Shown: in pieces, positions 1 to 6,093 of the stretch
Layout of the letters: each line of letters starts with the position of its first letter
Position numbering within the stretch: position 1 is the stretch's first letter
Origin: Rhodanobacter sp. ANJX3
GTDB lineage: Bacteria > Pseudomonadota > Gammaproteobacteria > Xanthomonadales > Rhodanobacteraceae
Length of the DNA stretch: 64,000 bases
NCBI RefSeq assembly: GCF_014200755.1
Contig: NZ_JACHCM010000001.1
Span: 646,367-710,366, forward strand
Reading direction: 5' to 3'
Translations under genes and position numbers: made by a program
The notes under the pieces: model-generated
Databases searched by the model: none
The model's input: only the letters and a program-made list of their open reading frames with translations
What the model was told of the DNA's origin: nothing

Positions 1-1589
1 TTGATCGTCGCGTTGCTGTAGTAACCGCTGAGCGCGTCGGTGCTTCCCGCTGCCGCATCGCTGCCGTTGGCGTCCAGGTTCCAGTTTACCGACGCGCCGT
101 AGCCGAGGTTGACGCTCGCGCCGGCACCGTTGACCGCGCCGCTCGAGTAACCGCCAAACGTGACGTCGCTGCCGCTGTTGTCAGTTAGGTTGAATGTTTC
201 ACCAGTATCACCCGAAGCAGCGTCGATCGTACCGCCTGTGGCGGTGACGGTGTTGTTGTTGCCTTGTATGGTCAAAGAATCCTGATTGACAGATACCTCA
301 TCATCGACACCATTAATATTTATTGAAGGCGTCAAGTCATTATTAAAATAAAGATCAGCATTCGATACGTCAGCATCAATCTGATCGTCAGATTGGTTCG
401 ATTGAAAAAAATTGTTGGCATTTGTAGAACTAAGAGGACTGAGTCCATCTACAACGCCGTATCCTTGGAAAACTCCAGAAGAACTAAAACTAAAAAAAGT
501 TGTTGAACTATCTGCAGCGTTACTTATCGCACATGACGTCATTCCACCACAGTTAAATCCCGCATCGACCAACTGTTGCATAACGTCGTCAGTAGTTAAC
601 AAGTTACTGTTACCAGAAGACGGACTAGGGTTATTCAACTCAAGATCGCTAGTATTTATGCTAACCGTATGATTATTTGATTCTTGCTCTGCCACATTAA
701 GATCATATGCCGTATCCTTGTCAAGATAAGTAACGTCACTGGGATACCCAGAAGGCTGCAAGGAAGCGAACGAAGCACCGGCAGCCTGAATATTCTGATC
801 GCTTGAAGCGATATGACCATTCGCATCAAAGGCTCCGTAATTTATACTTCCATCCGAATTATAGATGATACTTTCTACTGTTGAAAGATATCCGTAATTA
901 TTAATAGCCGAATTAATGACAATCTGATTTACTTGACCACCGTTTGCTGCCGCTGCAATATCCACCGCAGAATTAAAACCGCTAATCGCCGCTGAACCCT
1001 CATCGCCCAGGTTTGCAGTAACATTATCTTCGATAATGGAATCAAGCTCCGATGCATTCCCTGCCTCAGATGAAGCGGCAGCTGCAAATTGGCTATCGGC
1101 ATTTGCAATGCCAGGCGCATCTAACGCGTGCTGCATTTCGTGACCAAAAAAAGATGCGATGTCCTCGCTTTGCAATTGAGCGTTTGATTGTACTGCTTGC
1201 GAAAAAAGCTGGTTCGCCACAAAGTTCGAGCCAAGAATCATCGAGTCGCTCAACGGGTCGTAAGCACCAGAGTTATAGTTAAGAGTCGATCCGGGAGGAT
1301 TGGAGTAGTTAGTGTCGTAAGTAAAAGATTTCAGCAAATTTTGCGACTGAGACTGATTGATTTCATTGATAGCTGTTGGCGAAGAAAGTAAATCGTTATA
1401 AATAGTATTGAAATCGTTCACCAAAGTAATATTCCCAGACATCGCTGATTGAAGAGCGCCAAACATCTTATTGACGTCATCATTAAACGCTGGATTATTG
1501 GGAGGTATCGATGGAGGCGTCGTCGCAGGAGCTGCATCATTGGGGCCAGCCTCGGACATCGCATTGATATCTTGAACATTAATTGACAT
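1..1589 (-). CDS. Large presumed type I secretion substrate with HExxH motif (partial, 5' part)
   Basis: The reading frame is open from an ATG at 1589 to the window edge (529 codons, no stop), so the C-terminus is missing. An AGG-containing ribosome site lies just upstream. The N-terminus (MSINVQDINAMSEAG) is not a Sec signal; it vaguely resembles a double-glycine leader whose GG has become AG. Residues 150-154 read HEMQH, the zinc-binding HExxH motif of metallopeptidases. After about residue 430 the protein becomes a Gly/Asn/Ser/Thr/Asp-rich beta-repeat sequence. The gene is the last of a minus-strand group with HlyB- and HlyD-like genes, so export by that machine is inferred. The first ~440 codons are clearly AT-richer than the repeat part and the rest of the window, which suggests transfer or module shuffling. 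I cannot name a family. A metalloprotease toxin or surface protein is a reasonable guess; the missing C-terminus should hold the secretion signal. Confidence 0.8.
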   Translation of the reverse strand, partial: MSINVQDINAMSEAGPNDAAPATTPPSIPPNNPAFNDDVNKMFGALQSAMSGNITLVNDFNTIYNDLLSSPTAINEINQSQSQNLLKSFTYDTNYSNPPGSTLNYNSGAYDPLSDSMILGSNFVANQLFSQAVQSNAQLQSEDIASFFGHEMQHALDAPGIANADSQFAAAASSEAGNASELDSIIEDNVTANLGDEGSAAISGFNSAVDIAAAANGGQVNQIVINSAINNYGYLSTVESIIYNSDGSINYGAFDANGHIASSDQNIQAAGASFASLQPSGYPSDVTYLDKDTAYDLNVAEQESNNHTVSINTSDLELNNPSPSSGNSNLLTTDDVMQQLVDAGFNCGGMTSCAISNAADSSTTFFSFSSSGVFQGYGVVDGLSPLSSTNANNFFQSNQSDDQIDADVSNADLYFNNDLTPSININGVDDEVSVNQDSLTIQGNNNTVTATGGTIDAASGDTGETFNLTDNSGSDVTFGGYSSGAVNGAGASVNLGYGASVNWNLDANGSDAAAGSTDALSGYYSNATI

Positions 1590-1726
1590 AAATATCTACC
1601 TGAGTATTTGGGAAAATTATTTATATTTAATTAGATAAAATAATGCCTGGTTGTAGACAAACGGAGGAGCGACCTACCTTATTTGCCTTGCGCCTCATAT
1701 CTGAAGCATACCAACCGCGTTAACAT

Positions 1727-2383
1727 TTATTTTTCAAGATTCCCATCGATTTGAATGAAAGTGATGCAGCCGTCTTCAGGCTTTACAGATTCGCGATATT
1801 TCGACTGATTGTATGTCCCTGTATACGCCAAAGCGATATGCGCACCTTTTTTCACGAACGTAATGTGATTGGGATCAGCGAATTCTGTTATGCCATCTGG
1901 CTTTTCATGATGAACCTCCCAGCCTGACTTGACGACATCCCCAAATGCCACATCTGCTCGTACACATTGCTCTTTTTTATCGTCGGACATAAAGGGCCAA
2001 TCAACTCGGAATGTCGATGCTGCACTGGCCGCGCCGTCTTTTCCTGCAGATGGTTTACTTACTTTATACATATAACTAAAAGACACAGGATAACGTGGAA
2101 AATAATCACTGTGCCCACCATCTGGAAAGTCTTTAAATCTTTCTAATTTCATCCCCATCACCGCATCGACATCGGAAGCCGTTATGAATCCATCTTTGCG
2201 ACCAATCAATGTCATAACCTTGCCCCAAAGCTCCGGTCCGGTGTAGGGTGGATTTGCCTTCATCCGAGCCACTTGATCATTCAACGCCATTGAAATTTCT
2301 TCATGGCCAACCGCAGGGCACACGCTTATTACTAACATTGCCAAGCTGATTAGAAAGAACAAGCCATCGCGTATCAATTTCAT
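1727..2383 (-). CDS. Exported protein of unknown function in the type I secretion locus
   Basis: The product has 218 residues. It starts with a clear signal peptide (basic MKLIR, hydrophobic core at 8-22, AVG cleavage site near residue 26), so a periplasmic or outer location is expected. The mature part has two cysteines (C140 and C206) that could form a disulfide. I recognise no catalytic motif or family. The gene sits between the HlyD-like adaptor and the large presumed substrate, all on the same strand, with gaps of 112 and 137 bp. It shares the lower GC of the substrate gene rather than that of the transporter genes. It could be an accessory or protective protein for the secreted product, but only position supports this. 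Confidence 0.75.
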   Translation of the reverse strand: MKLIRDGLFFLISLAMLVISVCPAVGHEEISMALNDQVARMKANPPYTGPELWGKVMTLIGRKDGFITASDVDAVMGMKLERFKDFPDGGHSDYFPRYPVSFSYMYKVSKPSAGKDGAASAASTFRVDWPFMSDDKKEQCVRADVAFGDVVKSGWEVHHEKPDGITEFADPNHITFVKKGAHIALAYTGTYNQSKYRESVKPEDGCITFIQIDGNLEK

Positions 2384-2495
2384 CTTTTATCCTCATTATT
2401 TCTATAATCGCCATGTTGATTGTTTAACGGAATCACTCATTCCATAACATGTACTAGCCTTGAAACATCTTCGACATTCGGTTTCACAAACCACT

Positions 2496-3923
2496 TCACC
2501 GCTCATGCAGACTCTCCCTCGCATGCTGCATCAACGGACTGAGCAAATAGCCAATAATCCGCCGCCGCCCGGTCTTGATTTCCGCGGTCACGGTCATACC
2601 CGGCGTTAGGCGAATTTCCCGATCCTCGATCTGCATGGTGTTCTGCGACAGCGCCAGCTGAGCGGTGAACACCCAGCTCTTTTTGTCGGCATCGTCCTGC
2701 TTGGCATCGTTGGATACCTGCACGACGGTGCCGTGCAGCGTGCCGTAGCGGGTGAACGGGAAGGTTTCCACTTTTACCTCAGCGATCTGGCCATTCTTGA
2801 TGAAACCGATGTCCTGGTTGTCTATGGTGACTTCCACCATCAGCGGACCTTGATCGGGCACCAGCGTCATGATCACCTGCGCAGGAGTCACGACGCCGCC
2901 CACGGTATGGACGGCGAGTTGCTGCACGGTGCCATCCACCGGCGCTAGTAGGCGCATAAGCCGGCCACGCTGCTGCGCCTTGGTCAGGTCTTGGACAAGA
3001 CCGGCCGCCTTAGCATCGTCATCGTGGATTTTTTCCAGCCAGGTACGACGCGTCTGCGCTATATAAGCCTCGCGTTTGCGCTGGGATGCATCGAGCGTTG
3101 CCTCGGCTTCCGCCAGTTTGGCGCGTTCGGCCGAGAGATCTTGCTGTATCTGGATGACAGCCTGCTGTTCGTTGTAATAGTCGTGCAGGCCGACGTCGCC
3201 GTTGACGATCAGGCCGGCAAAGTCCTTTTCCTTTTTTTGTTCGATGGGCAAGGTGTCGGCGAGCTTTCGAATCTGCGCATCGATTTCATGCAAGGTGGCT
3301 GCGTTCTGTGCGATATCGGCGCCCATTTCCTGCACGGTACTGAGGTAATCGGCATACTCGCCTTCCAATACATGGCGCTCTGCCTCCGCCGTAGCTCGAT
3401 CCAAGTCGTTATCTTGGCCCAACACCGGCTCGTGACCCTTGTCGATTGCATCGAGCATCGCGCGACCGCGTAACGCTTCGATACGGGTCGCGCTGAGGTC
3501 GGATTGCGCATGGACGGCGTTGGTCTGCGCATCGGTGGCATCCAGGTCAAGCAGGGGCTGACCACGCTTGACCTGTTGTCCGTCGACGACATGGATGGCC
3601 GTCACTACCGCGGTATCCTGCGACTGGATCGTCTTCACTTCGCCCGTAGGTACGATTTTGCCTTTGGCGGTGGCCACGATATCGAGGCTGCCGAAGCAGG
3701 CCCAGGCAAGAGCCACGGTCAATAGTGCCGCAATGACAAACATTGCAACGCGCGGCGCCGGATGCATCGGCGTATCGCGCAAGGCCAGTGCGGCCGGCTG
3801 AAACTCGTTTTCATGCCGCATACGCGGCACCGTATCGAGTTCGGTGCGTAGGCGCCACGAGGCCTTGAATACCTGCGTGTAACGTTCCCGCAAATCGCTT
3901 AAAGCTTGCTGACGCAGGCTCAT
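2496..3923 (-). CDS. HlyD-family type I secretion membrane fusion protein
   Basis: This periplasmic adaptor should link the inner-membrane ABC exporter to a TolC-type outer-membrane channel. The 475 residues show a cytoplasmic N-terminus, one membrane segment at about 58-77, a lipoyl-like half motif (around the GKIVPTGEVKTIQS stretch), a long Gln/Ala/Glu-rich coiled coil at about 150-330, and a C-terminal beta-barrel part ending with RLTPGMTVTAEIKTG, typical of HlyD. The start at 3923 was chosen over a longer frame because the ABC gene ends at 3928, leaving 4 bp and suggesting coupled translation, and because MSLRQQAL fits the family. No TolC homologue lies in the window. Confidence 0.92.
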   Translation of the reverse strand: MSLRQQALSDLRERYTQVFKASWRLRTELDTVPRMRHENEFQPAALALRDTPMHPAPRVAMFVIAALLTVALAWACFGSLDIVATAKGKIVPTGEVKTIQSQDTAVVTAIHVVDGQQVKRGQPLLDLDATDAQTNAVHAQSDLSATRIEALRGRAMLDAIDKGHEPVLGQDNDLDRATAEAERHVLEGEYADYLSTVQEMGADIAQNAATLHEIDAQIRKLADTLPIEQKKEKDFAGLIVNGDVGLHDYYNEQQAVIQIQQDLSAERAKLAEAEATLDASQRKREAYIAQTRRTWLEKIHDDDAKAAGLVQDLTKAQQRGRLMRLLAPVDGTVQQLAVHTVGGVVTPAQVIMTLVPDQGPLMVEVTIDNQDIGFIKNGQIAEVKVETFPFTRYGTLHGTVVQVSNDAKQDDADKKSWVFTAQLALSQNTMQIEDREIRLTPGMTVTAEIKTGRRRIIGYLLSPLMQHARESLHER

Positions 3924-3927
3924 GGCT

Positions 3928-6093
3928 TCACCCGTGCTGAAGTTGATGCAATCGGGCGTAATGGCCCAACTGATGAACGAGTAACTCGGTATGCGACCCC
4001 TGCTCCACAATGCAGCCGCGATCCATCACGATGATGCGGTTCGCATCGCGCACCGCAGAGAGGCGGTGCGCGATGATGATTACCGTTCGCCCCTGACAGA
4101 TGGAACGCATATTGGCCTGGATAATACGTTCGGATTCATAATCCAACGCACTGGTGGCTTCATCGAAAATCAGGATGCGCGGGTTGTTCATCAGCGCACG
4201 CGCGATGGCTACCCGCTGCCGCTGCCCGCCTGATAGCGTCGAGCCATGCTCGCCCACCATGGTGTCGTAGGCTTCGGGAAGATCGAGAATAAAATCGTGC
4301 GCGCCGGCAAGTTTGGCGGCCGCGATGACGGCTTCCAGCGGCGCACCGGAGTCTACCAGCGCGATATTTTCGCGAAGCGTCCGGTTGAAGAGAATGTTGT
4401 CCTGCAACACCACGCCGATCTGCCGACGTAGCGATGACACGTCGACCATCGCCAGGTCCACGCCATCCACCAGTACGCGGCCGCGTTCGGGAACGTACAG
4501 GCGTTGGATAAGTTTCGTCAGCGTGCTTTTGCCAGAACCGGAGCGGCCGACAATGCCGATCACCTCACCTGGCTGTACGACGAGACTCACGCCGCTCAGC
4601 ACTTCGGGCATACCCGGGCGATACCGGAAGCTGACGTTATCGAGTTCGACGCTGCCTTTTAGCCTTGGCAACGCGCTTCGATTGCTGTTGGCCGACTCAG
4701 TGGGCGCGTTCAAAATGTCACCCAGCCGCTGCATGGAGATACCGGTTTGCTGGAAATCCGTCCATAACTGGGCTATGCGCATGATCGGTTGCGCCACGCG
4801 ACTGGCGAGCATATTGAAGGCGATCAGCTGGCCCACCGTCATGCTGCCATCGATGACTAAACGCGCCCCCACCCAGATAGTGACTACGGTGACCAATTTG
4901 CCGACGTAATTGACGCCTTCCCGCGCAACCGTACCGAGCGCCGTGGTGCGAAAGCCGGATTCCACATAGCCTGCCAGCTGGTTGTCCCAACGCCGCGTGG
5001 TTTGCGGTTCTACCGCCATCGCCTTGACGGTATCGATGCCGCTGATGGTCTCGACCAGAAAGGCCTGGTTCTCGGCGCCACGATTGAACTTGTCACGAAG
5101 CTTCGCACGTAGAGCGGGGGTTAAAACCACGGACAAGAACGCGTAAAGCGGTAACGAAGCAACCACTGCCAACGTGAGCCAACCGCTGTAGCAACACATC
5201 ACCGCGATAAATACAAACGAAAACAGCACGTCCATCACTAGCGTAATGGCATTGCCAGTCAAAAAGCTTCGGATATTTTCCAGCTCGCGGACTCGCGCTA
5301 CGGAATCACCGACACGGCGCGCCTGAAAGTAGGCCAGCGGCAGTGCTAAAAGATGGCGAAACAAGCGCGCACCAAGTTCTACATCGATACGGCTTGTAGT
5401 GTGCGCAAATACGTAGGTGCGCAAACCACTAAGTATCGATTCAAAAGTCATGCAGATCAGCAAACCGACGGCAATGACATCCAGCGTGGTTAGCCCATGA
5501 TGGACCAGCACCTTATCCATCACGACTTGAAAAAAGAGAGGGGTAACAAGCCCAAGCATCTGCAGGAAAAACGAGATCACCAAGATCTCGCCAAGCAGCT
5601 TGCGATACTTGACCACCGCCGGAATGAACCAGCTGAAATCAAAGCGTGACAACTCACCCGCCAGCGACGCGCGCGAAGTAAAAAGCAGCACTTCGCCGGA
5701 CCAGCGCTCTTCGACTTCAGCCGGAGAAAGCAGCTGTGGCGCCGCATGACGCGGATCTTGGATCAAGACTTTCTGATCGTTGGCACGTGCGATCACATAC
5801 GCATGGCCGGCGTGATCGATAACAACGGCAGGTAGAGCCAAATGGGCGATACGCGTCGGTGACGATCGCACAGCTTTGGCTTTGAGGCCGATTTTTCTAG
5901 CGGCCAAAAGAATGAGATCACGCCCAAAGGAACGACCAGGCTCCTGAAACTCGTGGGCTATCTGCGCGGGATTAAACGCAATACCGTGGAATCGCGCAAT
6001 CAGGGCAAGGCACGCAAGCCCGCTGTCTATCTCAGCGACACTCGCCTCAGCAAAACTGTCGTTTCCCGTATCAGCGTGAATATGACTATTCAC
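3928..6093 (-). CDS. HlyB-like type I secretion ABC transporter with inactive peptidase-like domain
   Basis: This 721-residue inner-membrane exporter closely resembles HlyB of haemolysin systems; segments such as FFQVVMDKVLVH and RTYVFAHTTSRIDVELGA are nearly family-invariant. Domains in order: C39-peptidase-like domain (about 20-140), six-helix membrane domain (about 155-440), and an ATPase with Walker A GRSGSGKST, signature LSGGQRQR, Walker B ILIFDEATS and an H-loop (IAHRLS). The peptidase domain has Ser24 (DSGLACL) where active C39 enzymes have the nucleophilic Cys, though the His and Asp positions look kept (GHAYVI, QDP). It is therefore the non-cleaving CLD type that binds substrates. 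The start codon is GTG at 6093. It is first in a group with the HlyD-like gene and the large substrate gene. Confidence 0.93.
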   Translation of the reverse strand: MNSHIHADTGNDSFAEASVAEIDSGLACLALIARFHGIAFNPAQIAHEFQEPGRSFGRDLILLAARKIGLKAKAVRSSPTRIAHLALPAVVIDHAGHAYVIARANDQKVLIQDPRHAAPQLLSPAEVEERWSGEVLLFTSRASLAGELSRFDFSWFIPAVVKYRKLLGEILVISFFLQMLGLVTPLFFQVVMDKVLVHHGLTTLDVIAVGLLICMTFESILSGLRTYVFAHTTSRIDVELGARLFRHLLALPLAYFQARRVGDSVARVRELENIRSFLTGNAITLVMDVLFSFVFIAVMCCYSGWLTLAVVASLPLYAFLSVVLTPALRAKLRDKFNRGAENQAFLVETISGIDTVKAMAVEPQTTRRWDNQLAGYVESGFRTTALGTVAREGVNYVGKLVTVVTIWVGARLVIDGSMTVGQLIAFNMLASRVAQPIMRIAQLWTDFQQTGISMQRLGDILNAPTESANSNRSALPRLKGSVELDNVSFRYRPGMPEVLSGVSLVVQPGEVIGIVGRSGSGKSTLTKLIQRLYVPERGRVLVDGVDLAMVDVSSLRRQIGVVLQDNILFNRTLRENIALVDSGAPLEAVIAAAKLAGAHDFILDLPEAYDTMVGEHGSTLSGGQRQRVAIARALMNNPRILIFDEATSALDYESERIIQANMRSICQGRTVIIIAHRLSAVRDANRIIVMDRGCIVEQGSHTELLVHQLGHYARLHQLQHG

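What the first reader, a model, noticed from the sequence alone, without database searches (positions are those of the whole stretch)
1..6093. Type I secretion locus with an uncharacterised HExxH-bearing substrate and an exported companion
Seen: HlyB-like ABC gene, HlyD-like gene, exported 218-residue protein, and a long open frame with HEMQH at residues 150-154, followed by Gly/Asn-rich beta repeats, all on one strand. The last two genes are AT-richer than their neighbours. Known: HlyB/HlyD pairs export uncleaved proteins with C-terminal signals, often RTX proteins. Inferred: the substrate is a secreted zinc protease or surface adhesin with protease-like N-terminus. I recognise no family for either protein, so this is the best candidate for something undescribed.
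Basis: partly seen in the sequence, partly recalled or inferred. Interest (0 to 1): 0.8.

Follow-up and report, generated by a model that had tools for sequence, protein, structure and literature searches.

The report
Exported toxin with matching immunity gene
This soil-bacterium gene cluster looks like a weapon against rival bacteria: a one-step export pump, a large exported protein whose front end resembles toxins that relatives inject by another route, and a small partner protein that probably shields the producer.

Summary
In detail: HlyB-type ABC, HlyD, an exported 218-residue protein and a long frame with HEMQH, one strand. Beyond a 97-base assembly gap at the window edge the frame continues into repeats, a Tyr/Gly/Asp linker, a matrixin (M10) domain and an 'LHQLVQAMASF' tail; no RTX repeats. 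The N-terminal domain is homologous to the HExxH domain of antibacterial X-T4SS effectors (hhalign 99.0%, E 8e-18), the companion to exported proteins encoded beside them (95.8%, E 7e-9). Of 10 such substrates with a visible N-terminus in Dyella and kin, all 10 have an exported-type gene directly upstream; 7 of 8 loci with a visible 5' side have the T1SS. Front ends diverge while the carrier is conserved: tandem D. nitratireducens genes are 31% identical in front, 92% at the back. One front end is lipase-like by motif. A sulfotransferase gene follows in 7 of 9 loci. Best reading: a T1SS-exported polymorphic antibacterial toxin with immunity protein, a variant of a published hypothesis (FrpC/FrpD). 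Killing, protease activity, immunity and sulfation are inferred, not shown.

The parts
3928..6093 (-). HlyB-type T1SS ABC transporter; C39-like domain (about 5668-6039) with Ser where C39 peptidases have Cys ('DSGLACL'), so probably a docking domain, not a leader peptidase
   Evidence: loss of the Cys read from the sequence, motif recalled
2496..3923 (-). HlyD-type periplasmic adaptor (ATG start)
1727..2383 (-). Companion: exported 218-aa protein, putative periplasmic immunity protein related to X-Tfi-type proteins; hydrophobic signal about 2306-2383
3..1589 (-). N-terminal 529 aa of the T1SS substrate; runs off the window into a 97-N assembly gap
300..1589 (-). N-terminal HExxH domain (residues 1-430) homologous to X-Tfe effector domains; putative toxin domain
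1128..1142 (-). HEMQH, putative zinc site (residues 150-154); H/E/H invariant in 13 aligned relatives
999..1001 (-). Glu197 of 'DEGxAxIxGxN', invariant; candidate third zinc ligand (inferred)
3..299 (-). Start of Gly/Asn-rich beta repeats (resemblance to DUF3060 below cut-off here, above it in one relative); continues outside the window in L004:14551-15903 with linker, M10 domain and tail

Best explanation
A type I secreted, modular ('polymorphic') antibacterial toxin with its immunity protein. The HlyB/HlyD pair, probably with a TolC encoded elsewhere, exports the roughly 1,000-residue protein by its uncleaved C-terminal tail ('LHQLVQAMxxF'). Outside the cell, beta repeats display the N-terminal HExxH domain, a predicted zinc metallopeptidase of the kind found in X-T4SS antibacterial effectors, which acts on the envelope of a neighbouring cell. 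The 218-aa companion goes to the producer's periplasm and blocks the toxin domain there. The C-terminal matrixin domain is a second protease, possibly one that processes or releases the protein. The sulfotransferase encoded just downstream may sulfate the Tyr/Asp-rich linker. SHOWN by sequence: gene order, domain homologies, conserved tail, paired companions, fast-diverging N-termini on a conserved carrier. INFERRED: export, killing, target, catalysis, immunity, processing, sulfation.
For: N-domain against X-Tfe domains: hhalign 99.0%, E 8.3e-18 over 271 columns (7 against 14 rows); reversed control 0.1%. Pfam X-Tfes_XVIPCD in 5 of 6 HExxH relatives outside T1SS loci that were scanned. Companions against the proteins upstream of X-Tfes: 95.8%, E 7.3e-9 (13 against 7 rows); 90.5%, E 1.4e-6 with only 7 directly toxin-adjacent rows; reversed 0.2% and 0.1%. 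An exported-type gene sits directly upstream in 10 of 10 T1SS-type substrates with a visible N-terminus, 190-280 aa in nine and 434 aa in the MAG (N-terminal hydrophobic stretch computed for 7 of them, judged by eye for the other 3). ABC+HlyD adjacent in 7 of 8 T1SS-type loci with a visible 5' side, and in 0 of 8 loci of the X-Tfe-like group. Median pairwise identity 30% N-domain, 23% companion, 57% M10+tail (some companion pairs aligned over short stretches only); tandem D. nitratireducens genes 31% in front, 92% in the M10+tail part. Lipase-like front end with WD40-type companion in L043 and six small exported genes in L057. Published X-Tfes are antibacterial with immunity genes upstream; XAC0096 is called a putative HExxH metallopeptidase (PMC6759196, passages).
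Against: No experiment on any member. The toxin-domain model is useless (pLDDT 37.4) and the companion model matches no solved immunity protein convincingly. XAC0096/XAC0097 or any other characterised pair were not compared here. The HExxH activity of X-Tfes is itself only predicted in the passages read. T1SS releases to the medium; how the toxin would reach a target periplasm is unknown. The L043 lipase call rests on GHSLGG and a weak hit (E 0.036). The window's own gene crosses a gap, so its intactness is unproven. The paralogue on C2 has no T1SS beside it and no M10 domain.
Confidence: 0.7

Rival explanations
1. The substrate is a nutritional or matrix-modifying exoprotease (serralysin-like role) and the companion is a periplasmic inhibitor that protects the producer; rivals are not the target.
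For: Two metalloprotease-type domains (HExxH N-domain, M10 matrixin E 4.6e-21); T1SS exports serralysins (recalled).
Against: The N-domain is shared with antibacterial T4SS effectors; front ends and companions diverge together while the carrier stays conserved; one front end is lipase-like; a run of small exported genes in L057 fits competition better than feeding.
Confidence: 0.13
2. A surface adhesin or biofilm protein with an anchoring or assembly companion, comparable to the adhesion role suggested for FrpC/FrpD (title of a reference seen).
For: Long beta repeats; exported partner; FrpD is an outer-membrane lipoprotein that binds FrpC (PMC6759196 passages).
Against: HExxH plus E197 conserved in 13 relatives; homology to T4SS effectors; the companion of the window has no clear lipobox (read from sequence, pattern recalled).
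Confidence: 0.08
3. A factor aimed at a eukaryote (plant, amoeba, fungus), comparable to the RaxX-RaxST-RaxAB signal system in Xanthomonas.
For: Sulfotransferase gene next to a T1SS-type substrate in 7 of 9 loci, as in raxX-raxSTAB (PMC6637879 passages).
Against: RaxX is a 60-residue peptide with a double-glycine leader; here a large protein with a C-terminal tail and an ABC whose C39 domain lacks the Cys; immunity-like companions are not needed against eukaryotes.
Confidence: 0.06

Closest known systems
X-T4SS effector / immunity pairs (X-Tfe/X-Tfi), HExxH type (XAC0096/XAC0097 in print)
   Same: Homologous N-terminal HExxH domain and homologous exported partner encoded directly upstream, as judged from XVIPCD proteins found here, not from XAC0096 itself
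   Different: No XVIPCD; carrier is beta repeats + M10 + C-terminal tail next to a T1SS; the T1SS-type N-domains form their own group (9 of 40 rows, support 100/98, with long branches and odd composition)
FrpC/FrpD of Neisseria and RTX proteins with Smlt3024-like N-termini
   Same: T1SS protein with an N-terminal domain bound by an exported partner; proposed in print as T1SS antibacterial effector and immunity protein (PMC6759196 passages)
   Different: Other domain families, with RTX repeats and self-processing there; no HExxH domain, matrixin domain or sulfotransferase mentioned in the passages read
CDZ of Caulobacter (CdzC/CdzD/CdzI, T1SS CdzAB)
   Same: Antibacterial T1SS system with immunity gene
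   Different: CDZ toxins are 84-86 aa glycine-zipper proteins with N-terminal signals (PMC5380434 passages); here about 1,000-1,640 aa with a C-terminal tail
RaxX-RaxST-RaxAB
   Same: Sulfotransferase gene beside a T1SS and its substrate
   Different: 60-aa peptide substrate, double-glycine leader removed by RaxB (PMC6637879 passages); relation of the two sulfotransferases not tested
Serralysins and other M10 proteases exported by T1SS
   Same: M10-type zinc site, T1SS
   Different: M10 domain is C-terminal, Asp where serralysins have a third His, and no RTX region (ligand pattern recalled)

Membership tests
Type I secretion system with HlyB-type ABC | HlyB-type ABC and HlyD adaptor above curated cut-offs | tested here: met
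   TIGR01846 1023.7/725.55 bits; TIGR01843 367.7/208.65
Type I secretion system with HlyB-type ABC | Substrate with C-terminal secretion signal, no N-terminal signal | tested here: inconclusive
   L, V, A, M, F invariant in the tail of 10 aligned substrates, no strongly hydrophobic N-terminus in 7 N-domains; export not tested
RTX protein family | GGxGxDxxx nonapeptide repeats | tested here: not met
   0 in both halves of the window's gene; at most 1 in any of the relatives counted; no RTX family in the Pfam scans
X-Tfe (X-T4SS effector) | C-terminal XVIPCD (PF20410) | tested here: not met
   absent from the Pfam scan of the window gene's C-terminal half and of full-length T1SS-type relatives in L031 (two), L043, L045, L057; the C2 paralogue was not scanned
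X-Tfe (X-T4SS effector) | HExxH effector domain homologous to that of XVIPCD proteins | tested here: met
X-Tfi-type immunity protein | Exported protein encoded directly upstream of the effector, homologous to the proteins in that place beside XVIPCD effectors | tested here: met
   homology remote (9% identity); not compared with a characterised X-Tfi
X-Tfi-type immunity protein | Neutralises the cognate toxin | not testable with these tools
   needs a bench test
Peptidase M10 (matrixin) | PF00413 above cut-off with HExxHxxGxxH/D and Met-turn | tested here: met
   75.8/24 bits; HEIGHALGLAD...SIMN (ligand pattern recalled); in G214 the third ligand position is Ser
Polymorphic toxin system | Variable N-terminal domain on a conserved carrier, each with a paired upstream gene (sequence level only) | tested here: met
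   31% against 92% in tandem genes; lipase-like variant, extra small exported genes; orientation is N-terminal toxin, opposite to most described systems (recalled)
Polymorphic toxin system | Toxicity of the variable domain and protection by the paired protein | not testable with these tools
   needs a bench test
CDZ bacteriocins | Small glycine-zipper peptides with N-terminal signal | tested here: not met
   size and sequence; definition from PMC5380434 passages
Tyrosylprotein sulfotransferase | Sulfotransferase with protein-tyrosine activity | tested here: inconclusive
   PF13469 E 3.8e-19; best solved-structure hit of the 7-row profile is TPST1, E 9.1e-5; activity untested

The most novel reading that the evidence does not exclude
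A family of type I secreted polymorphic antibacterial proteins in Rhodanobacteraceae, in which X-Tfe-type warheads and X-Tfi-type immunity proteins are carried by a T1SS substrate instead of being injected by a T4SS, and in which a dedicated sulfotransferase sulfates the tyrosine-rich linker before export: a weapon class with N-terminal warheads and a possible second case of bacterial tyrosine sulfation.
Probability: 0.3. Interest if true: 0.85.

Novelty: new variant of a known kind. Interest (0 to 1): 0.66.

Why it matters
T1SS is mostly known for host-directed toxins, proteases, adhesins and small bacteriocins (recalled). The same kind of effector-immunity pair behind two unrelated export routes would show that warhead and immunity gene travel as a unit and that the carrier decides the route. 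It would also give the published but untested idea about FrpC/FrpD a second, independent and tractable case, with a two-toxin operon open from end to end in a named species (Dyella nitratireducens). The sulfotransferase makes a second bacterial tyrosine-sulfation system testable; a 2019 paper calls RaxST/RaxX the only documented example (PMC6637879, passage).

Tried and rejected

Dropped before counts: degenerate loci L060 (G308) and L122 (G214:C13), which hold only a short ABC remnant and an M10 or tail fragment; loci whose 5' side is off the contig (L042, L045, L046, L056) were left out of the T1SS-adjacency count, and loci whose 3' side is off the contig (L034, L119, L120) out of the sulfotransferase count. 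D. choica (L042 and L119) and G115 (L034 and L056) are each seen as two contig ends of one genome. That G365, G320 and G382 are D. nitratireducens, D. monticola and D. choica is inferred from equal contig lengths. The X-Tfe set (14 rows) was picked with a motif filter and holds one gene twice (L014 and G389); 3 of 18 genomes hit showed no HExxH frame and were not aligned. The D. choica, G810 and MAG companions were not in the companion comparison.
Full report
OBSERVATION. The window starts inside a minus-strand operon: HlyB-type ABC 3928-6093, HlyD 2496-3923, exported 218-aa protein 1727-2383, substrate 1589 to beyond the edge. The ABC and HlyD pass the curated T1SS cut-offs. The C39-like domain of the ABC has Ser in place of the catalytic Cys ('DSGLACL'; motif recalled), as expected for a transporter of substrates with uncleaved C-terminal signals. 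Companion and substrate are AT-rich (39-50% GC) against the transporter genes (53-60%) and the chromosome from 6.5 to 12 kb (63-70%).

BEYOND THE EDGE. The window is G000:C1:646367-710366. To its left lies a 97-N assembly gap; then the same frame continues for 450 residues to a stop. The two sides share a repeat ('NSGSDVTFGGYSS'; 117 bases at 79% identity), which is the likely cause of the gap (inferred). The left part holds Gly/Asn-rich repeats, a Tyr/Gly/Asp linker, a matrixin domain (PF00413, E 4.6e-21) with HEIGHALGLAD, and a tail with LHQLVQAMASF. A sulfotransferase gene follows (PF13469, E 3.8e-19). RTX nonapeptides are absent.

A SECOND COPY AT HOME. The same genome has a second substrate-companion pair on contig C2 (L009): 1,128 aa with HETQH and the same kind of tail but no matrixin motif, and a 273-aa companion 31% identical to the window's. 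It has no T1SS genes within the 20 kb fetched.

WHAT THE N-TERMINAL DOMAIN IS. A profile of these two N-domains finds relatives in 18 of 398 genomes of the order, the own genome included. Of six HExxH relatives outside T1SS loci scanned with Pfam, five carry X-Tfes_XVIPCD (PF20410), the VirD4-recognition domain of antibacterial X-T4SS effectors; the sixth, from the own genome, has a Gln-rich C-terminus but no match. Profile-profile comparison of 7 T1SS-type against 14 X-Tfe-type rows gives 99.0% and E 8.3e-18 over 271 columns; reversed rows give 0.1%. In 13 aligned rows H150, E151, H154, E197 and N206 are invariant, which suggests a zinc site with Glu as third ligand (inferred). A tree of 40 domains puts the 9 T1SS-type rows on one side of a branch (100/98), one change against a shuffled mean of 8.3; long branches and odd letter make-up in these rows weaken this, and the root is not known.

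WHAT THE COMPANION IS. An exported-type gene lies directly upstream of the toxin gene in 10 of 10 T1SS-type substrates with a visible N-terminus: own1, own2, D. nitratireducens a and b, D. monticola, D. choica, G115, G214, G810 and the Lysobacterales MAG. Nine are 190-280 aa; the MAG's is 434 aa and WD40-like, matching its different front end. The six X-Tfe-type loci examined for this also have one. T1SS-type companions (13 rows, extra L057 genes and the G308 remnant included) and X-Tfe-side proteins (7 rows) are homologous at 95.8%, E 7.3e-9; with seven directly adjacent companions, 90.5% and E 1.4e-6; reversed 0.2% and 0.1%. In L057 six small exported genes stand between HlyD and the substrate, three of them close paralogues, like an immunity array.

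MODULARITY. Across loci the median pairwise identity is 30% for N-domains, 23% for companions (some pairs over short stretches only), 57% for M10+tail, 76% for ABC and 63% for HlyD; the last two medians include a second T1SS of the own genome. In D. nitratireducens two substrates stand in tandem, each with its companion: 31% identical in front, 92% in the M10+tail part. Along their alignment, blocks of 50 columns show about 20-35% over the first 450 columns, mixed values with large gaps in the repeats, and 80-100% from column 1100 on. In the MAG (L043) the carrier bears a front end with GHSLGG, lipase-like only by motif and a weak match (E 0.036). This is the pattern of polymorphic toxins, here with the variable part at the N-terminus.

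LINKAGE TO T1SS. ABC and HlyD lie next to the pair in 7 of 8 T1SS-type loci whose 5' side is visible: window, L031, L034, L043, L057, L119, L120; not L009 (window). None of 8 loci of the X-Tfe-like group has them (L032, L033, L035, L039, L040, L041, L121, L123). Four Dyella genomes with the carrier or a remnant (G308, G320, G365, G382) have no XVIPCD match at all, while own, G115 and G214 have 9, 2 and 8, so the T1SS version occurs without X-Tfes. VirB10-type genes occur in 5 of these 7 genomes, G320 and G365 among them.

TAIL AND SULFOTRANSFERASE. The tail keeps L, V, A, M and F in all 10 substrates aligned. A search with it in six genomes finds these substrates and one fragment (G214:C13) at E 1e-16 or better, and nothing else below E 0.02; all but the fragment were in the model. 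A sulfotransferase, 63-68% identical to the one beside the window's substrate, follows the substrate in 7 of 9 loci with a visible 3' side, the own one counted. Its profile matches TPST1 best among solved structures, weakly (E 9.1e-5). In the nine substrates of the seven sulfotransferase loci the 60 residues before the M10 domain hold 4-6 Tyr with 5-11 acidic residues; in G214, which lacks the gene in the 577 bases visible, they hold 1 Tyr. Tyrosine sulfation is therefore a reasonable but untested guess.

DISTRIBUTION. Carrier at E 1e-20: 7 of 398 genomes of the order, 1 of 369 in the class sample, which is the own genome. N-domain, both types: 36 of 233 genomes of the family. Named carriers: Dyella choica, D. 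nitratireducens, D. monticola, Dyella sp. ASV21 and a Lysobacterales MAG. The own genome is placed in the same family as these Dyella.

WHAT IS KNOWN. X-Tfe/X-Tfi pairs are a known antibacterial system; XAC0096 is called a putative HExxH metallopeptidase, and the S. maltophilia X-Tfe genes lie in small operons with a putative immunity gene upstream (PMC6759196, passages). HExxH domains are listed among X-Tfe domains (PMC6536674, passages), and XAC0096/XAC0097 as a pair (PMC10933484, passages). PMC6759196 found another X-Tfe, Smlt3024, homologous to the N-termini of RTX proteins and suggested that FrpC/FrpD is a T1SS effector-immunity pair. The idea of T1SS antibacterial effectors with X-Tfe-like heads is thus in print as a hypothesis, for another domain family. 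In a large review of polymorphic toxins the passages found mention the type I system for RTX toxins (PMC3482391, passages). Searches for T1SS with polymorphic toxins or immunity proteins (listings and starts of abstracts, not the papers) showed no description of the present family; the library lacks most subscription papers.

MECHANISM AND CONFIDENCE. T1SS export by the tail: likely (0.9). Companion as immunity protein: 0.75. HExxH domain as a metallopeptidase toxin against bacteria: 0.65-0.7. M10 as processing protease and sulfation of the linker: open (about 0.4 each). How the protein crosses the target outer membrane is unknown.

Noticed in passing
L005:5000-12739 (G000:C9): A second T1SS operon in the same genome (ABC about 60% identical to the window's; HlyD; a TolC-like gene) flanked by two genes that look like glycosyltransferases by eye; its substrate was not identified.
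   Followed up: no
L057:5267-9664 (G214): Six small exported genes in a row between HlyD and the substrate, three close paralogues: possible immunity array against toxins of relatives.
   Followed up: partly
L043:4518-10765: T1SS-type substrate of 1,637 aa with GHSLGG (lipase-like) front end and a WD40-type companion with a signal-like N-terminus.
   Followed up: partly
L036:8535-9329, L037:7561-8412, L038:7352-8197: Proteins of 264-283 aa with signal-like N-termini, matched by the N-domain profile but without HExxH, at the same chromosomal place in three genomes.
   Followed up: no
L031:10368-11123: TPR protein with a signal-like N-terminus between HlyD and the first companion in D. nitratireducens.
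   Followed up: no
L060:9435-11177 and L122:9600-9920: Decayed T1SS-type loci: short ABC remnant, with in L060 a companion and an M10 fragment, suggesting loss of the system.
   Followed up: partly
L035:8913-10885 (G000:C7): Third HExxH relative in the own genome, 396 aa with Gln-rich C-terminus but no PF20410 match, beside an X-Tfi-like gene.
   Followed up: partly
G214:C17:20920-21246: XVIPCD match at an open frame of 1,236 aa, longer than the other XVIPCD frames listed.
   Followed up: no
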